Below are positions 2,397 through 54,249 of a stretch of 64,000 bases of DNA, in pieces. Source of the stretch: Euphorbia lathyris (taxonomy: Eukaryota; Streptophyta; Magnoliopsida; Malpighiales; Euphorbiaceae); assembly GCF_963576675.1 (NCBI RefSeq), contig NC_088917.1, positions 14,908,001-14,972,000 of the forward strand, read 5' to 3'. The translations under genes and the position numbers were made by a program. Positions within the stretch are counted from its first letter, which is position 1, and each line of letters opens with the position of its first letter. The notes under the pieces were generated by a model that was not told the origin of the DNA, made no database searches, and saw nothing but the letters and a program-made list of their open reading frames with translations.

Positions 2397-2532
2397 ATTA
2401 TTTTCCTTGATTCTTTCTTCTAATTTTTTTTAATTCATTCGCTATCTTAGAATTAACTCCTCTCTCTCTCCTAATTTCTCTCTCCAAAACCAATTTTCGA
2501 CTTCACCCTTTGCTTTAAGAAATAGGTTTTAG

Positions 2533-2964
2533 AGATGGTTAGCCATAGCACAAAGTCTACCTAGAAGGACCATCAACCAAATTTAAAACTTGTGGAATAC
2601 ACATTTGAAGAAGAAACTTCTGCAATTGGGTATTGACGCTGACACACACAGGCCAAGAACTGGCCTTAATCTTCTTGCTAATTTACCACTTGAGGCCCTT
2701 ATAGATGTTGAGATACTAAAAATCACCACATATGCTTTCTTCAAATTCTTCATTTGTAGAAAATATCCAACAACGGCCATACACGAGCAGAAGTTTTCCA
2801 TCACTCGCATATTTAATATGAAAATATTGTCAGCCATGGAAGAACATGTGATAGACTATAAATGTTATGAAGAAAACGTCGCCAGTCATGGAAGAACAAG
2901 CGATGGTTGTGTTAATTTTCCAGATTTTAAGCAAATGATGGCTGCTAAGAATAGCAAAAATTGA
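2533..2964 (+). pseudogene. captured R2R3-MYB fragment (end of R3 repeat and C-terminal start)
   Basis: In one frame the fragment reads WLAIAQSLPRRT, then NLWNTHLKKKLLQLGID, then THRPRTGLNLLANLP. This is the second half of the R3 repeat of a plant R2R3-MYB factor, with its recognition helix, and the conserved stretch after it. A TAA at about 2587-2589 interrupts the frame where MYBs have Lys before NxWNTHL. An AG acceptor precedes the Trp codon, exactly where plant R2R3-MYB genes keep their second intron, so genomic DNA (intron plus exon 3) was captured. Downstream of LANLP the 80 or so residues up to the TGA at 2962-2964 are not recognisable. The piece has no start and only half a DNA-binding domain, so it cannot act as a factor. 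Antisense or siRNA effects on the donor gene are conceivable but unproven. Confidence 0.8.
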
Positions 2965-2981
2965 AGTGGCAATCTAGGTAT

Positions 2982-4317
2982 TGTTGGTCCCTTATAACGT
3001 GACAAGGTTAGTTCCAATGGGGGGATAGGAACTATTTAAAATTTTGTCCGTTAAGGCTGACTTCTTTTCTTGAGAAAAGGTTTACACAGCGGCACTAAGT
3101 AATTCTAAGACACAAGCTTAGTCAACTTGTGACTAAGTTTGCTTCTTTACTTGAGTAAGGAGATAGCACTTAGAGTCTATTCCTGAACTCAGCTTCTTAG
3201 TGCACTCAACTCAGCGTGAGTTTGTTACTTAGTCAGTTTTATAGCAAGCAATATATGTAAAGGAGTTTAAGGTTAGAAATAAGTTACTCAGCAGACTTAT
3301 TCTGGTTCGGACTCTCCGCCTACGTCCAGTACCCGGAACTCGTTCCGAGCTTTTTGAATTCTCTACTGAGCTCTTTAAAAGTAGAGCACCAAACCTTTTA
3401 CAATAGAAGCTGAGTATACAAGAGTACATTCCTCTATACCTCTACTCACTCCTATATCTACCACTGAGTACTATAACCGAGTACTCGGCCTCTCCTTTCT
3501 ATTCTTCTAGAAATGATAAAGTGTTTGTCCTAAACAACAATTGCTAAGACACTTTAGATGATTGAAATCACTCTAGACTTTTACACAATAATATGGAAAT
3601 TGGTGTAAGGTTTTTGCTTTTCTTTTCTCATAGAACTTCGTGTAGGAATTTGGTCAGCGTTTCGGCTAATTGAAGATCTGCATCGAATGAAGCAAATGAG
3701 AGGCCTTTATATAGTGACACTTGAGGCACCGGTAATTTCGAATTTCGAAATAACCGTTGGAGGGAAACGACTTCCTGTCGTTGTCACTCAGTACGTGCAC
3801 AGTGTCGTTGGCCAATGAGATTCTTGCATCTTCTGTCCGCAGCAGTGCTCGGCAGATTTTCGTCCGGTAAACAGAATGTTTCGACATTCTTGGCAAAGTC
3901 TTCTAGACAGCTTCCTGCGCCTTCTGAACTTTACCCAAAGTAGAAATACTTTGTCTAGAAGTTGATTCTTGTCTGCCGCTGTCCTGACTGCTTATCGCTT
4001 AACTCAGCAGCTTCCTCTTGAAGCTTTTGCTATAAGGCTTTTCGATCTTCTTCATGCTGAGTCGTCATTTTGCTTGAAACGGCTACATTTCATCTTCTTG
4101 GGCCGTAAGGTCTTGATTATATTGACTTTGGCTTGACTTCCACTCATGGGCTTTTAGACTTTATATCTTAATGTCTTATAGATAAATAAACTCAACATTG
4201 AACAAACACAATAGTATAAATAAATCAAAGCATTTAAATTTAATGTGTTAGAATATTTTTTATCAATTACTTAAATAATTTTGTCAAATCAAAATCATGT
4301 GGAAAGGTGTTTCAACA
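2982..4317 (-). repeat. 3' LTR of the Copia element (1336 bp)
   Basis: On the plus strand it starts TGTTGGTCCCTTATAACG and ends GGTGTTTCAACA. It is 51 bp longer than the right LTR, almost entirely because of one deletion in the right copy (left LTR about 3165-3230 against right LTR about 13388). Otherwise the two are closely similar by eye. A TATA box (TATATAAAGG, minus) lies at about 3705-3714. Confidence 0.92.
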
Positions 4318-4850
4318 AACTCACCCATTTTGATGTTGGCAAAAATATTCAATCAAGAACTCAATGTTGAGCTCCCCCATGATAGTTGACCTTATATTAC
4401 TCAGTATACTCCCCCGTAAGGGTTGAGCGGCTGACTTAGATTTACTTTAAACATTTCAATGTTGAATCAAGTAAGTCTAAAGTCAGTTTTCAGAATTAGG
4501 TCAGCTCATGGAACATATTCTTTTTAACTCAGTTTATGCGGAAGATTTAGATATCTTAGAGCGCTGAGTATATCTTTGTTTAATGTGTTTAAGAAGATAT
4601 ATAAAAGAGGTCAACATATTGATCAACACAGCATACAGTCATAAAGCAATGTAGACAAATAGCATAGTTGATTTAGTGAAGATGTGTTTAACTATTCAAT
4701 ACAAAACATAAGTAAGCATCACATAAGATTGGTTAATTTTAAAAAGATAGATGCATGCAAGGTTTTGTATTCAGGGTCAACACAACAAAAAATACATAAG
4801 GGAAAGACTACAAGTTTTAACAAAATGGAATCTAGTAAATCCTAGTCAAG

Positions 4851-14798: not shown

Positions 14799-15119
14799 TG
14801 ATAGCTCCCATTTGTATAGGGTTTTTAGGCCCCTTTTAGCTTCCTTTTGCTTTATTTCCTTTTAATTTCAGTAGCGTTTTATTATCTTTTAGTTTAAATT
14901 AGCAATTTCCCTTATTTTTGGCATTTTCGGTGTTTTCAGGGATTTTCAGGGACCTTTCGTGCATTTCCGAACCAGACCCAAGCCTATTGGAGCATTTCCG
15001 GATCATTCAGGGACCATCAGAGCACTTTTGGGATTCGTCAGGGACTATTAGAGCACTTTTCGGAATCCTAGGGACCTAAACAGATAAAAGCCGAAGCCAC
15101 AATTCCTCAAATAGGACCT

Positions 15120-15225
15120 GTCTCGGCGAGACATCACCTGTCTCGTCGAGACAGGCCCTCGTCTCGTCGAGACAGGCCTTGTCTCGACGAGACGAGGCGG
15201 GGGAAGGCGCGCCTGCGCCTTCCCC
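15120..15225. repeat. array of GTCTCGNCGAGAC palindromes and a GC hairpin
   Basis: Four 13-bp palindromes (central N = G, T, T, A) spaced by 6-8 bp, followed by a perfect 11-bp inverted repeat GGGGAAGGCGC / GCGCCTTCCCC with a 4-base loop at 15200-15225. The block is strongly GC-rich inside an AT-rich LTR. The 3' LTR carries six copies. Confidence 0.85.
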
Positions 15226-18609: not shown

Positions 18610-20290
18610 TGATAGCTCCCATTTGTATAGGGTTTTTAGGCCCCTTTTAGCTTCCTTTTGCTTTATTTCCTTTTAATTTCAGTAGCGTTTTATTATCTTT
18701 TAGTTTAAATTAGCAATTTCCCTTATTTTTGGCATTTTCGGTGTTTTTAGGGATTTTCAGGGACCTTTCGTGCATTTCCGAACCAGACCCAAGCCTATTG
18801 GAGCATTTCCGGATCATTCAGGGACCATCAGAGCACTTTTGGAATTCGTCAGGGACCATTAGAGCACTTTTCGGAAGCCTAGGGACCTAAACAGATAAAA
18901 GCCGAAGCCACAGTTCCTCAAATAGGACCTGTCTCGGCGAGACATCACCTGTCTCGTCGAGACAGGCCCTCGTCTCGTCGAGACAGGCCCTCGTCTCGTC
19001 GAGACAGGCCCTCGTCTCGTCGAGACAGGCCTTGTCTCGACGAGACGAGGCGGGGGAAGGCGCGCCTGCGCCTTCCCCTTTGCTGAAATTCGCGGATCAG
19101 GACCCTGAAAGCCCATTTAATACTTTGTAAATGCCATTTTTACCCCTGAAGCATTAGGGTTTCCTTCCTAATTCTATAAATAGGGAGCTAAACCTAATCT
19201 TTCAGGGGGGGATTAGCCATTCAATAAAATTAGAGAGCCGTTAGGGCTTTCTCTCCTCCACAATGTAGTTTTAGCTTTTAGTTTAGTTTTCTTGCTTTCT
19301 AGATTAGGTTTATTTCTGTTTTGTCTTTTCTTTCAAGAACAATTGATTGGAGAAGTTCTTCAACTTCTATTTCTGTAATTGGAATCGGCAAAACGGGTTT
19401 TGGATTTCTATCTCTTTCCCTTTTATCTTTTGCGATTATATTTAATTGAAGCTTTTTCCATTGTTCTTATTATGCCCATTGCTTGGATTGGTTTGTCTAT
19501 GAACTGATCTCCATCCAATTTGGGATGGGGATGAAATTGATTGTATGAATATGTATGATTAGGGATCTAGGACCTTTGATTGATCAGTTTATGCATGCTT
19601 AATGCCTAGGTAATGTTAGGAACATGATTTATGCTAGAATGAACATTGATAATGATCAACTAGCCTGTTTATGTATATAATGTGCTTAATGCCTGTGACC
19701 CTGACATTAAATAGGATTATAGATAGATGAGAACCTGACCACGGAATCGTCTATACTGAACTTGTGTAAATCTGACTTCGCTAGAGACCACTAGGAATGA
19801 GGCTTTGTGGCTGGGCTACGGCTTTAGCCTTAGTTGTCAATAAACCTAATGCTTTGCATGACCTAGGGTATATGCCTAATCAAGCCGTCACCCGAATGCA
19901 TGTGAATAGGTTAGACAAATCTCGTACAAATTTGTCTTTCACTTAGGACAATTACCTTCAATCATTGTTAAAACACAAATCTGAACTCCCTAAACCCATA
20001 CCTAGGATTTAATCAAAGGAATCCTCAACCTATATTGTGCCACCCGTCAATTCACCTTCTACCCTGTCAATTGTTCACTTTGTTTTGTTATGTTTATTTC
20101 ATTTAATTCAATTAGTTAGTTATTAAAACCCCAAATCCTTATCCAACCCTCTAAACAATTAGATCATTCTATGTAGATTTACTAGTTATAACGAATAGTC
20201 TTTGTGGTTCGATCTCATGCTTAGCACAATATTACTTGTTGCGATAAGATACACTTGTCCTATTAAATGATATATACTTTACGAGCATCA
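18610..20290 (+). repeat. 3' LTR of the Athila-like element (1681 bp)
   Basis: Same ends as the 5' LTR. The 42-bp length difference equals two additional copies of the CCCTCGTCTCGTCGAGACAGG unit (18931-19046 against 15120-15193). Directly followed by CCATA, the target duplication, and the outer right TIR of the Pack-MULE. Confidence 0.92.
18931..19046. repeat. expanded GTCTCGNCGAGAC array in the 3' LTR
   Basis: Six palindromes, four of them with T in the centre. Three are carried by identical 21-bp units, where the 5' LTR has one. The open frame that runs through it on the minus strand (VSTRRGP repeats) is a by-product of the tandem units, not a gene. Confidence 0.85.
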
Positions 20291-50945: not shown

Positions 50946-51075
50946 CTAAGAAAAACTAAATAAAGTCATGGATATCACACAAATAATTTAGAATAATTTT
51001 ATTTACAAATTAATATTATTTAAGTTTTTTTTAGATTATTATAAAAAAAATGGTTATACTTTTATGATTATATAA

Positions 51076-51758
51076 GGCCTAATGCATACCCAGCCCCCTA
51101 AAGTTATCCATTTTGTTCATTTAACCCCCTCACCTTACGGGACAACCCTTTAACCCCCTAAATTCTATAAAAAATGGTATTTCTCACCCCCTTAACTTGT
51201 CCATTTATCCCCCAACTCATAGAATGTTCTATTTACCCCCCTTAACTCCATAAAAGTGGTATTTTTCACCCCTTACAATCCGTTATCGAAGTCTAAATTG
51301 ATAACTTTTTTTAAACGTTAAACCTATATTTATGTTTTCCATAAAAGTGGAACCTAAATTGACACTTTCCCAAAAATCATAGGCTCATTTCAGTACATTA
51401 TCCCTACATATAATGTATTTAACTTGTTTATATTAATGTTCTTGTTATTTGTATTTTTTATTCGTTCTTTCTCCATTCAAATTTTTTTACTACTATAAAG
51501 GGATAAGAAATACCATTTTTATGAAATTAAGAGGGTAAATAGGATCATAAGTGGTGAGAAATACCACTTTTATGGAGTTAAGGGGGTAAATAGAATATTC
51601 GATGAGTTGAGAAGGGGTAAAATGACAAATTTGGACAAGTTAAGGGGGTGAGAAATACCATTTTTATGGAGTTTAGGGGGTTAAAGGGTTGTCCCGTAAG
51701 GTGAGAGGGTTAAATGAACAAAACGGACAACTTTAGGGGGCTGGATATGCATTAGGCC
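51076..51758. mobile_element. 683-bp Mutator-type MITE with 9-bp TSD
   Basis: Begins GGCCTAATGCATACCCAGCC, ends with the inverted counterpart, and has arms of about 230 bp built of C-run motifs (TTAACCCCCT, TTCACCCCTT). Perfect 9-bp duplication ATTATATAA at 51067-51075 and 51759-51767. It encodes nothing. Confidence 0.88.
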
Positions 51759-52024
51759 ATTATATAAATAAGAGTTGTTTACCTGTTAAATTATTATAAG
51801 GGTAATGCTATTTACCGCAATATTTTTTCCACCTACCGCACTATTTTGACACTTTTGCCCTCCTCATAATTTCAATTAAAAAAAACAAAAATCTCAAATC
51901 CTCTTTAGCTTTTTGGTTTTTCAAAAAACCCGACCTAAAACAACATACCGCCAAAGTCAGGAGCGGGTAAAGGCTTCATGAAACCTCCCGTAAGTTTTTT
52001 TTTAAAAAAATTACTCAAAAATCA

Positions 52025-52057
52025 CGGGTTTCGCCTCCGAATTGGAGGCGAAACCCG
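52025..52057. repeat. perfect 14-bp inverted repeat
   Basis: CGGGTTTCGCCTCC and its complement separated by GAATT, just inside the left part of the MULE before the first array. Confidence 0.92.
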
Positions 52058-52088
52058 GATGATTATGAACTAAACGGTCAGTCCGTGT

Positions 52089-52317
52089 CGTTTCCGCCAC
52101 GGGTGGAACGGACGAACTGTCCATTCCACCGTCGGCGGAAACGGCACGGCCGTTCGTTCCACTTTACGGTGGAACGAACGGCGCCTTCGTTCCACTGTAC
52201 GGTGGAACGAAAGGCGCTACCGTTCCACCGTAAAGTGGAACGATGGCCATGCTCGTTCCGCCTTATGGCGGAACGAGCGGCGCATCCGTTCCGCCGTACT
52301 CCGCAACAACAAACTTC
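52089..52317. repeat. 33-bp tandem array, each unit with a 22-bp palindrome
   Basis: CGTTCC (or a variant) starts at 52122, 52155, 52188, 52221, 52254 and 52287, exactly 33 bp apart, with a further degenerate unit at about 52089. Each unit holds a palindrome of the form CGTTCCACCGTA..GTGGAACG (A/G and inner bases vary, and some arms change in a compensating way) plus an 11-bp spacer. As 33 is a multiple of 3, the array is open in several frames. It has a high GC content in AT-rich surroundings. Confidence 0.9.
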
Positions 52318-53485
52318 GCAACAACCCCAACTGCTCCTTATGCACCAACCACGTCTCCTCAACGTACGAGATAAGAGTTTGGTACCTGCTCATCGAATCC
52401 TTCATTTTGCCCAGATTGTCCTCGTACTCCGCAATGGATAAAGATTCAATTAATGTTCTCCATTTTCCATTCTTGAATTTGTCGGCAATTGATTTGTCTC
52501 CCATGATTCTGTATGCCCGATCTTCTACATCCTTGTTTATATGCCAGGTGCATAGCAAATGTGTTGTATGTGGGAAAACATCCAGAATCGGTTTCAACAA
52601 CCCCAACTCCCTATCACTAACGATAACAGTCGGGTTGAGATCAAACCCAATCAAAACCCTCAGCCGCTGCAGGACCCAACGGTAACTTCCTTCAGTCTCA
52701 TCTTTAATGATGGCATATGCGATCTTGAAATTGTTATTGCAAGGCGTCATCCCAACAATTTCAACAAATGGCATTTTGTACTTGTTGGTTTTGTACGTGG
52801 AATCAATGCCGATGTACCAGTGATAAGTCTTGAATAAATCTACTGATTCTGGATGTACCATAAACACATGTGTAATGATGCTGGAATCACCCTCAGTTTG
52901 CGTATAAAGAGCATACTTGTTCTCGAGAGCGATATGATAGAACTGACTAGCCAAGTCTCTACCTTCAAACCCATCATTCCTCATCTTATCTCTATAGTTG
53001 TAGACGTGCTTAATTGCTGGGTGGTCTTCAGGATGCTTTTCTTTAATGGCTGCTAAAATAGCACAAGACTTTGCTTGAGCCGAACTCATATCACGAACGA
53101 TTAATTTAGATGCGATACTGAGTCCGCTCATCTGCCGACTTCCCTCTGGATACACACGTAACGAATGATTGTGCTGACCAGTTAATCCAGCCTTAGCCTT
53201 TATCCTCCAACCAGTAAGGTCTAACCGTTGATAGGCTTTAATCTCAAATTTACACCTGCACGCTTTAGTTTTCGTTTTTCGTATTAACCCTGCATCATCT
53301 GTTTTCCCTCTGTAGCGTTCACCCCGTAAACATCTCAATTGCTTTTGCTTTCCACCATTTTTATGCGAAGATATTGTAATCTCAAACCCAATTCGAATAG
53401 CTACCTGTTTTGCCCAAGTAACAGCATCTTCACACGAAGCGAAAACGGTGTCCGTTATAAAAAGGAGAACTGTAATCAATGCCAT
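52217..53485 (-). pseudogene. MuDR/FAR1-like transposase, C-terminally replaced by repeats
   Basis: From the N-terminus: a FAR1-type DNA-binding region (CEDAVTWAKQVAIRIGFEI, then KACRCKFEIKA and HNHSL, with WRKY-GCM1-like Cys and His residues) at about residues 20-110, a spacer, and then the MULE transposase core with YHWYIGIDSTYKTNKY (first catalytic Asp), VIVSDRELGLL (second) and HLLCTWHINKDVE (the C-x-x-H helix). Homology ends at HKEQLGLL near 52320. The frame then runs into the 33-bp array and reads 11-residue repeats (VER.....SFH). The SWIM zinc finger expected after the core is missing. A short upstream exon (ATG at 54092, donor at 54049) is possible, but joining it requires a small shift near 53455. 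Probably inactive. Confidence 0.8.
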
Positions 53486-53751
53486 CCGGTTGCCAATCTT
53501 CTAACGGTTCCTAAATATATAAAAAATGCATAATATGTATTAACAATACGCAAAAAAAAATGTTAAAAAATGACATTCGGTTGCATAATAGGTATTAACA
53601 ATACATGTAAAAATTTAAAAATTTAAATTTAGGGCTTAGTCGGGTTAAAAAATACAATTCCGCACTTGTTCGGGCCTCGTATAGGCTAAACGGACAGGCT
53701 GCCCGGTTAAAATGCGGCAAATTGGTCAAATTATGCCTAAATGGGCAGCCT

Positions 53752-53965
53752 GCCCGTTCCACCGTACGTGGGAACAGGCAAGTCACGCCGCGCGCGCCGA
53801 CGGCGGAACGAGCGGCATGCGCTGCTCGTTCCGCAGGCCGAACGGGCAGCGCTCCGCTCGTTCCGCCCGCGGAACGAGCAGCGCATGCCGCTCGTTCCGT
53901 AGGCCGAACGAGCGGCGCATGCCACGGCCGAACGGGCAGTTCGACCGTGCGGCCGAACAACATCG
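53752..53965. repeat. second, more degenerate GC-rich palindromic array
   Basis: CGTTCC occurs at 53755, 53827, 53859 and 53893, and GGCGGAACGAGCGG or GGCCGAACGGGCAG-type arms alternate with it at about 33-bp spacing. It lies between the transposase frame and the right TIR, on the other side of the gene from the first array, and uses the same CGTTCCGC / GCGGAACG arms. Frames of 60-120 codons across it on both strands are by-products. Confidence 0.8.
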
Positions 53966-54249
53966 GCCGCCCATTTAGGCCAATTCAATTAAAAAAAATT
54001 CAAAATTCAAAAAACGAAATTTAAATTTAAATTTATATCGTAGGATTACCTCTTGTACGAAATCATGGTCTTCGGGAATTATCGGGTCCATTTTCGTCCA
54101 ATTAGAGTTTTTAGGCTTGGGAGAAAAAGAGAGGAAAAAAAGTTTTGGTTTTTGAGTTTAAATTATGAGGAGGGCATAATTATCAAAACAGTGCGGTAGG
54201 TGGAAAAACATATTGCGGCAAATAGCAGCCCACTTATTATAATCAACAC

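What the first reader, a model, noticed from the sequence alone, without database searches (positions are those of the whole stretch)
52089..52317. 33-bp palindromic tandem array fused to the end of a MULE transposase
At least six units at exactly 33-bp spacing each carry a 22-bp palindrome (CGTTCC...GGAACG) whose arms vary in a compensating way, inside an AT-rich element. The array replaces the transposase C-terminus and, because 33 is a multiple of 3, encodes an 11-residue repeat in frame. Regular palindromes with compensatory change suggest selection for structure or for a dimeric binding site, perhaps of the transposase itself.
Basis: partly seen in the sequence, partly recalled or inferred. 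Interest (0 to 1): 0.75.

Follow-up and report, generated by a model that had tools for sequence, protein, structure and literature searches.

The report
Co-evolving palindrome arrays in plant transposons
A family of jumping genes in what appears to be caper spurge carries, just inside its ends, arrays of DNA palindromes whose two halves change together, probably because one half is copied onto the other during DNA synthesis; the array is a part of the transposon's ends, not a new tail on its enzyme.

Summary
The array is real, but it is neither a transposase C-terminus nor a satellite. It is the subterminal region of a MULE. The window element (51800-54233, perfect 9-bp target-site duplication) has a second palindrome array near its other terminal repeat. 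In this copy a ~1.9-kb internal deletion fused the left array to the transposase frame.

In this genome (apparently Euphorbia lathyris) the core palindrome occurs 741 times, with no reversed-pattern control hit; in 18 of 741 the arms disagree at the A/G position. Of 29 loci chosen by palindrome alone, 28 match the window's left end at 100 bits or more, one at 72.

The strongest co-variation is not in the single 22-bp unit. The two units nearest the terminal repeat form one 63-bp palindrome (45 sequences, 92.9% of cells paired, 15 of 29 pairs changed on both sides). An ~85-bp palindrome at the other end behaves likewise in 12 selected copies. In the 63-bp palindrome G-T and A-C mismatches are equally common, which points to DNA rather than RNA. 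Loops are inverted between units more often than repeated, and changes arrive in both arms in blocks. This fits arm-to-arm copying by template switching. A role as protein-binding platform is plausible but untested.

The parts
51791..51799 (.). left target-site duplication TTATTATAA
   Evidence: identical to 54234-54242
51800..51883 (+). left terminal inverted repeat, begins GGGTAATGCTATTTACCGCA
   Evidence: inverted repeat with 54149-54208, 60 nt at 88%; first 20 bp occur 39 times in the genome
52026..52056 (.). 31-bp hairpin GGGTTTCGCCTCC..GGAGGCGAAACCC between terminal repeat and array
   Evidence: 14 of 15 window pairs; 90.6% of cells paired and 6 of 14 pairs changed on both sides in 45 sequences, with pair-type count not above shuffles
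52085..52147 (.). 63-bp palindrome made of the two units nearest the terminal repeat, loop GAACT
   Evidence: 24 of 31 pairs in the window; 92.9% of 1263 cells, 15 of 29 pairs changed on both sides in 45 sequences
52155..52308 (.). five further 33-bp units (52155, 52188, 52221, 52254, and a cut one at 52287); 52155 and 52221 are exact reverse complements
52298..52332 (.). deletion junction with a 14-nt copy of 52595-52608 at 52319-52332
52217..53485 (-). truncated MULE transposase frame running into the array
   Evidence: PF10551 E 5.5e-25; translation
53690..53960 (.). second (right) palindrome array; longest window palindrome about 53804-53899 (43 of 48 pairs)
54149..54233 (-). right terminal inverted repeat, outer end GTGGGCTGCTATTTGCCGCA on the minus strand
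54234..54242 (.). right target-site duplication TTATTATAA

Best explanation
The array is a conserved subterminal cis-region of a MULE clan, lying inside the terminal repeats, and it travels in ~530-630-bp non-autonomous copies. It is a hierarchy of palindromes: single 33-bp units inside longer two- or three-unit palindromes. Arms stay matched mainly because one arm is copied onto the other at DNA level (template switching or hairpin-templated repair), which puts blocks of changes into both arms at once and inverts loops. Shown here: location, homology across copies, co-variation, loop inversion between units, no G-T excess in the 63-bp palindrome. Inferred: template switching as the cause. Inferred with less support: the region is kept because it is a multi-site binding or synapsis platform for an element-encoded protein. 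The fusion to the transposase is a deletion in this copy.
For: 28 of 29 palindrome-chosen loci match the left end at 100 bits or more. Eleven of 21 terminal-repeat sites in the first 20 loci are 533-633-bp elements around the array with 9-bp duplications at 0-2 mismatches, five of them at 0. Mixed arms 18 of 741. 63-bp palindrome: 92.9% paired, 15 of 29 pairs changed on both sides, 94 such cells against 25.6 in shuffles; right-end palindrome 94.2%, 16 of 39. G-T 53 and A-C 51 cells. Loops inverted 57, same 21 of 307 pairs; between arrays 0.110 and 0.109; 53 and 21 of 303 without the duplicated C3 copies. 25 joint pair-to-pair changes on a flank tree against 2 and 1 in two slid controls, five branches with three or four at once. 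Template switching is reported to homogenise arms and invert spacers (PMC8604942, passages).
Against: 63 one-sided losses of pairing against 9 one-sided restorations on the same tree: arms also decay. With loops of 4 nt or more only, inversion exceeds repetition less clearly, 27 to 18. The 31-bp hairpin has 33 G-T and 19 A-C cells. No inversion was caught at one homologous, dated site. Nothing here tests protein binding or transposition.
Confidence: 0.6

Rival explanations
1. Selection for a dimeric, sequence-specific binding site: a transposase or other element protein binds paired CGTTCCRCC half-sites and selection keeps both arms the same, as thought for CACTA subterminal repeats.
For: The half-site recurs in many subfamilies whose ends are only about 72-90% identical; regular spacing, 239 of 282 steps at 32-34 bp; analogy with TNPA (PMC2613891, passages).
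Against: Units with other, still matched arms (CGTTTGGCC, CGATCCACC, CGCTCCACC) sit in the same arrays as the standard ones; co-variation extends over 29-39-bp arms and includes loops; single-unit hairpins in the terminal module do not co-vary.
Confidence: 0.2
2. Selection for an RNA hairpin in element transcripts (processing, stability or small-RNA supply).
For: Very stable predicted folds (z -17.2 and -11.1, DNA parameters) and strong co-variation.
Against: No G-T excess over A-C in the 63-bp palindrome, 53 to 51; joint changes come in blocks. The 31-bp hairpin's 33 to 19 leaves some room.
Confidence: 0.08
3. Purely neutral: palindromes self-perpetuate by template switching and ride along in MITEs, without any function.
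For: Arm decay and loop inversion need no selection; the mutation mechanism alone can make compensatory changes (PMC8794818, abstract and outline).
Against: The region keeps its place at both ends in divergent subfamilies and in short mobile copies, more than expected of a passenger, though shared descent is not excluded.
Confidence: 0.25
4. A C-terminal protein repeat of the transposase, or an ordinary satellite that the element happens to overlap.
For: In this copy the array is read in frame for about 2.5 units.
Against: In the long relatives read, the array is outside the ORFs; the junction is a deletion; palindrome sites come in small clusters at element ends.
Confidence: 0.02

Closest known systems
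CACTA elements (En/Spm, soybean Tgmt*) with stem-loop-forming subterminal repeats
   Same: Repeated motifs inside both terminal repeats; in Tgmt* they can form two palindromes on the left and 12 on the right; subterminal repeats of En/Spm are bound by TNPA (PMC2613891, passages).
   Different: Different superfamily: here the duplication is 9 bp and the domain is MULE, against a 3-bp duplication and CACTA ends there. The passages seen do not report co-varying arms.
VANDAL MULEs with VANC-bound motif arrays (Arabidopsis)
   Same: MULEs with tandem arrays of a short motif in non-coding regions that expand and diverge fast (PMC5735166 and PMC10398659, passages).
   Different: VANC21 motifs are 9 bp and arrayed in one orientation; here they are palindromes with inverted loops. 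No VANC gene was searched for here.
Foldback / Mutator-foldback elements (Tm1; FARE and FB named there)
   Same: Mutator-type 9-bp duplications and internally repetitive ends (PMC3169594, passages).
   Different: In Tm1 the tandem repeats make up the terminal repeat itself and are about 14-bp motifs; here each array lies inside an ordinary ~84-bp terminal repeat and is palindromic in itself.
MULEs with tandem terminal repeats (tomato, Arabidopsis and others)
   Same: MULE ends with duplicated sequence that may aid recognition (PMC3310237, passages).
   Different: Whole terminal repeats are duplicated there, not a short palindromic unit.
Template-switch (quasipalindrome) mutations
   Same: Arm homogenisation, spacer inversion and multibase compensatory changes (PMC8604942, passages; PMC8794818, abstract and outline).
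   Different: Described there in yeast genes and RNA genes; here in arrayed palindromes at transposon ends.

Membership tests
Mutator-like element (MULE) | 9-bp target-site duplication | tested here: met
   TTATTATAA on both sides; five further copies with no mismatch
Mutator-like element (MULE) | MULE transposase domain | tested here: met
   PF10551, 88.1 bits against cut-off 27.6
Mutator-like element (MULE) | long terminal inverted repeats | tested here: met
   60 nt at 88% plus 39 nt at 82% that takes in the duplication
CACTA (En/Spm) | CACTA termini and 3-bp target-site duplication | tested here: not met
   ends GGGTAATG / GTGGGCTG and 9-bp duplication
CACTA (En/Spm) | element protein that binds the subterminal repeats | not testable with these tools
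   needs a binding assay
Foldback element | terminal repeats that consist of tandem repeats | tested here: not met
   array starts about 285 bp inside the left end, behind an ordinary terminal repeat and a hairpin
VANDAL with VANC arrays | motifs arrayed in one orientation | tested here: not met
   units are palindromic and loops inverted 57 to 21 of 307 pairs
VANDAL with VANC arrays | VANC gene | not tested
   second ORF gave no Pfam match up to E 5; VANC itself was not searched for
Satellite DNA | long arrays independent of mobile elements | tested here: not met
   28 of 29 sampled loci match the element end at 100 bits or more, one at 72; 711 of the 741 sites were not opened beyond those clusters' own sites
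Template-switch homogenisation | matched arms with block-wise joint changes | tested here: met
Template-switch homogenisation | spacer (loop) inversion | tested here: met
   57 inverted and 21 same of 307 pairs, 53 and 21 of 303 without the C3 duplicates; seen between units, not as a dated event at one site

The most novel reading that the evidence does not exclude
The palindrome hierarchy is a self-repairing cis-element: because each site holds its own reverse-complement template, arm-to-arm copying restores sites damaged by mutation and lets a whole site change sequence in one step. The element's ends can then stay functional while drifting away from host recognition, with the element's own protein reading shape (cruciform or hairpin) more than sequence.
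Probability: 0.12. Interest if true: 0.78.

Novelty: new variant of a known kind. Interest (0 to 1): 0.5.

Why it matters
Compensatory change is usually taken as proof of selected structure. This family gives hundreds of palindromes in one genome in which matched arms, loop inversions and G-T/A-C balance can be used to separate template switching from selection. It also extends subterminal stem-loop arrays, known in CACTA elements, to both ends of a MULE, and gives a set of natural variants for testing what a MULE transposase recognises beyond its terminal repeat.

Tried and rejected
Rejected: a C-terminal protein repeat. Of 105 other transposase matches, 95 have a longer frame by the tool's count, which reads stops through, and in the long copies read the array lies outside the ORFs.

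Rejected: co-variation of single-unit hairpins in the terminal module (1 of 18 pairs changed on both sides, no better than shuffles).

A first count of compensation with loosely anchored arms was diluted by non-array sequence (193 distinct arm pairs; 38 of 227 deviations compensated, 21.0 expected) and was replaced by chain-based array calling.

Against the simple reading: the left arm of unit k pairs with the right arm of unit k+1 (81.5%) slightly better than with its own right arm (80.1%); a random other unit of the same array gives 75.4%, any array 72.6%. The 31-bp hairpin's number of pairs changed on both sides (6, shuffles 4.8) and of pair types (13, shuffles 15.7) is not above shuffles; the pair-type count of the right-end palindrome is not either (28, shuffles 27.9).

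CpG retention is no argument for special hypomethylation of the arrays: observed/expected 1.36 in arrays and 1.34 in their 200-bp flanks, against 0.67 for the window.

Pfam gave nothing for the second ORF or the C-terminal transposase ORF.

Literature: ten searches were answered. In their listings and in the passages read I saw no report of arm co-variation in MULE subterminal palindromes; most subscription journals are not held.

Rows dropped: A1 holds 44 of the 49 loci at 100 bits or more, plus the window; L016, L017, L019, L020 (copies with the same flank on C3) and L056 (cut) were left out. A2 holds 12 of 24 right ends, chosen because they held a long inverted repeat, so its paired percentage is biased upward; L078, which also had one, was left out as a near copy of L077. 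Of 24 right ends, 21 had at least one inverted repeat at the script's threshold. Of 39 exact terminal-repeat sites 29 were read, the window's own included; of 30 palindrome clusters listed on C1, 29 were read. Tree controls were run for slides -1 and +2 only. Distinct arrays were merged only when identical.

Full report
WHAT IS THERE. The finding lies in a 2434-bp Mutator-like element at 51800-54233, flanked by a perfect 9-bp target-site duplication TTATTATAA. Its terminal repeats match over 60 nt at 88%, and further out over 39 nt at 82%, a stretch that takes in the duplication. As single-stranded DNA the two arrays fold with z-scores of -17.2 and -11.1 against 200 dinucleotide shuffles each.

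HOST. The best matches of a relative's transposase are Euphorbia lathyris proteins on contigs of 88,063,383 and 98,129,200 bases, exactly the lengths of this genome's C8 and C4. Other E. lathyris contigs in that table are close to but not equal to contigs here (for example 143,144,699 against 143,130,644 for C1). Caper spurge is therefore the likely source, by inference.

THE FUSION IS A DELETION. In the long copies read, the order is terminal repeat, right array, transposase, a second ORF with a GDGNCGFR motif, left array, terminal repeat (the copy in L023+L056 is 4326 bp). Of 106 genome matches scored, the 105 other than the window align only up to residue 386 or earlier of the 390-residue query; 95 of 105 have a longer frame than the window's 427 residues by the tool's count, which reads stops through. 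Against the 4326-bp copy, window 51806-52298 matches 6-506 and window 52319-54227 matches 2402-4320, so about 1.9 kb is missing. Near the junction, 14 nt at 52319-52332 repeat 52595-52608 exactly and look like templated filler; the flanking sequence of the relative lacks them. The in-frame 11-residue repeat is real in this copy and runs into a stop after about 2.5 units.

THE ARRAY BELONGS TO THE ELEMENT'S ENDS. The first 20 bp of the left terminal repeat occur 39 times in the genome. Of the 21 such sites in the first 20 loci read, 11 are ends of 533-633-bp elements with matching 9-bp duplications (five with no mismatch) whose interior holds this array. The core palindrome CGTTCCRCC-N(0-8)-GGYGGAACG has 741 sites and no hit for the reversed pattern. 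Choosing loci by the palindrome and not by the terminal repeat, I read 29 of the 30 clusters listed on contig C1. Of these, 28 match an iterated profile of the window's left end at 100 bits or more and L039 at 72 bits. By blastn 23 of the 29 align directly to the window element at about 72-90% identity, and the other six align to loci among those 23. The other palindrome sites were counted, not opened.

ARMS CO-VARY, BUT NOT ONLY UNIT BY UNIT. At the A/G position 18 of 741 palindromes have disagreeing arms. In 52 distinct arrays with 334 units, own arms pair in 80.1% of cells, L(k) with R(k+1) in 81.5%, a random other unit of the same array in 75.4%, any array in 72.6%. The reason is a higher order. 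In alignment A1 (45 left ends) the two units nearest the terminal repeat form one 63-bp palindrome: 92.9% of 1263 cells paired, 15 of 29 pairs changed on both sides, 94 such cells against 25.6 in shuffles, at most 44.2% paired when slid. The same units scored as separate hairpins show no co-variation. The 31-bp hairpin pairs at 90.6%, with 36 cells changed on both sides against 12.0 in shuffles, but its numbers of such pairs (6 of 14) and of pair types do not exceed shuffles. In 12 of 24 right ends, chosen for a long inverted repeat, an ~85-bp palindrome pairs at 94.2% with 16 of 39 pairs changed on both sides. In the window itself units 52155 and 52221 are exact reverse complements of each other.

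HOW IT MOST LIKELY WORKS. Four signs point to copying of one arm onto the other at DNA level. First, G-T and A-C mismatches are equally frequent in the 63-bp palindrome (53 and 51 cells), where selection on an RNA should favour G-U on one strand; the 31-bp hairpin, 33 and 19, is less even. Second, asymmetric loops within an array are inverted 57 times and repeated 21 times among 307 pairs, while between arrays the rates are 0.110 and 0.109; without duplicated C3 copies it is 53 and 21 of 303, and for loops of 4 nt or more 27 and 18. Third, on a tree from flanking columns there are 25 joint pair-to-pair changes against 2 and 1 in two slid controls, and five branches carry three or four at once. 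Fourth, matched arms of other sequence (CGTTTGGCC, CGATCCACC, CGCTCCACC) stand beside CGTTCCACC in one array. Template switching is reported to homogenise arms and invert spacers (PMC8604942, passages) and to make multibase compensatory changes (PMC8794818, abstract and outline). Against it, the same tree count has 63 one-sided losses of pairing and only 9 one-sided restorations, so arms also decay. Function is not shown. Keeping the region at both ends and in short mobile copies makes a binding or synapsis role likely, as for CACTA subterminal repeats (PMC2613891, passages), but a neutral self-perpetuating hairpin region is not excluded.

COMPARISON. By duplication length, domain and terminal repeats this is a MULE. 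It resembles VANDAL motif arrays in being a tandem array in a MULE's non-coding part, but VANC21 motifs are arrayed in one orientation (PMC5735166, passages). It resembles foldback elements, but in Tm1 the repeats make up the terminal repeat itself (PMC3169594, passages). The nearest structural match is the stem-loop-forming subterminal repeats of CACTA elements, in another superfamily. I rate it a new variant of a known kind. Interest 0.5: well supported, with a clear use as a test of template switching against selection, but with no demonstrated function.

Noticed in passing
15113-15198 and 18924-19051: Two tandem arrays of a 20-21-bp unit with the palindrome GTCTCGTCGAGAC (4.0 and 6.2 copies) at the same place in two repeats that begin at 14799 and 18610 and look like LTRs; the unit number differs between the two.
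   Followed up: partly
51067-51767: A 683-bp element (51076-51758) right beside the MULE, with ends that match at 92 of 100 bases inverted and a 9-bp duplication ATTATATAA on both sides: another MULE-type MITE.
   Followed up: partly
L028 and L027, element coordinates about 2881-3521: A 212-aa second ORF with a GDGNCGFR motif (OTU-protease-like by recall) and no Pfam match up to E 5.
   Followed up: partly
G000:C3:22.05-22.34 Mb and G000:C5:95.32-95.42 Mb: Eight copies with the same flank GAAAAAAAT in one 0.3-Mb stretch, and six transposase copies about 18.9 kb apart: segmental or tandem duplications that carry the element along.
   Followed up: no
54044-54091: A short exon-like start (ATG at 54091-54089 on the minus strand, then a GAG/GTAATC junction) upstream of the right array suggests that the right array lies in the transposase gene's first intron; read from sequence only.
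   Followed up: partly
51800-51819 and 54214-54233: The outermost bases of the two ends (GGGTAATG and GTGGGCTG) are swapped relative to the long copy in L023, as if the tips of the terminal repeats had been exchanged.
   Followed up: no
53400-53490: The start of the window's transposase frame is out of frame with relatives, a second sign that this copy is defective.
   Followed up: no
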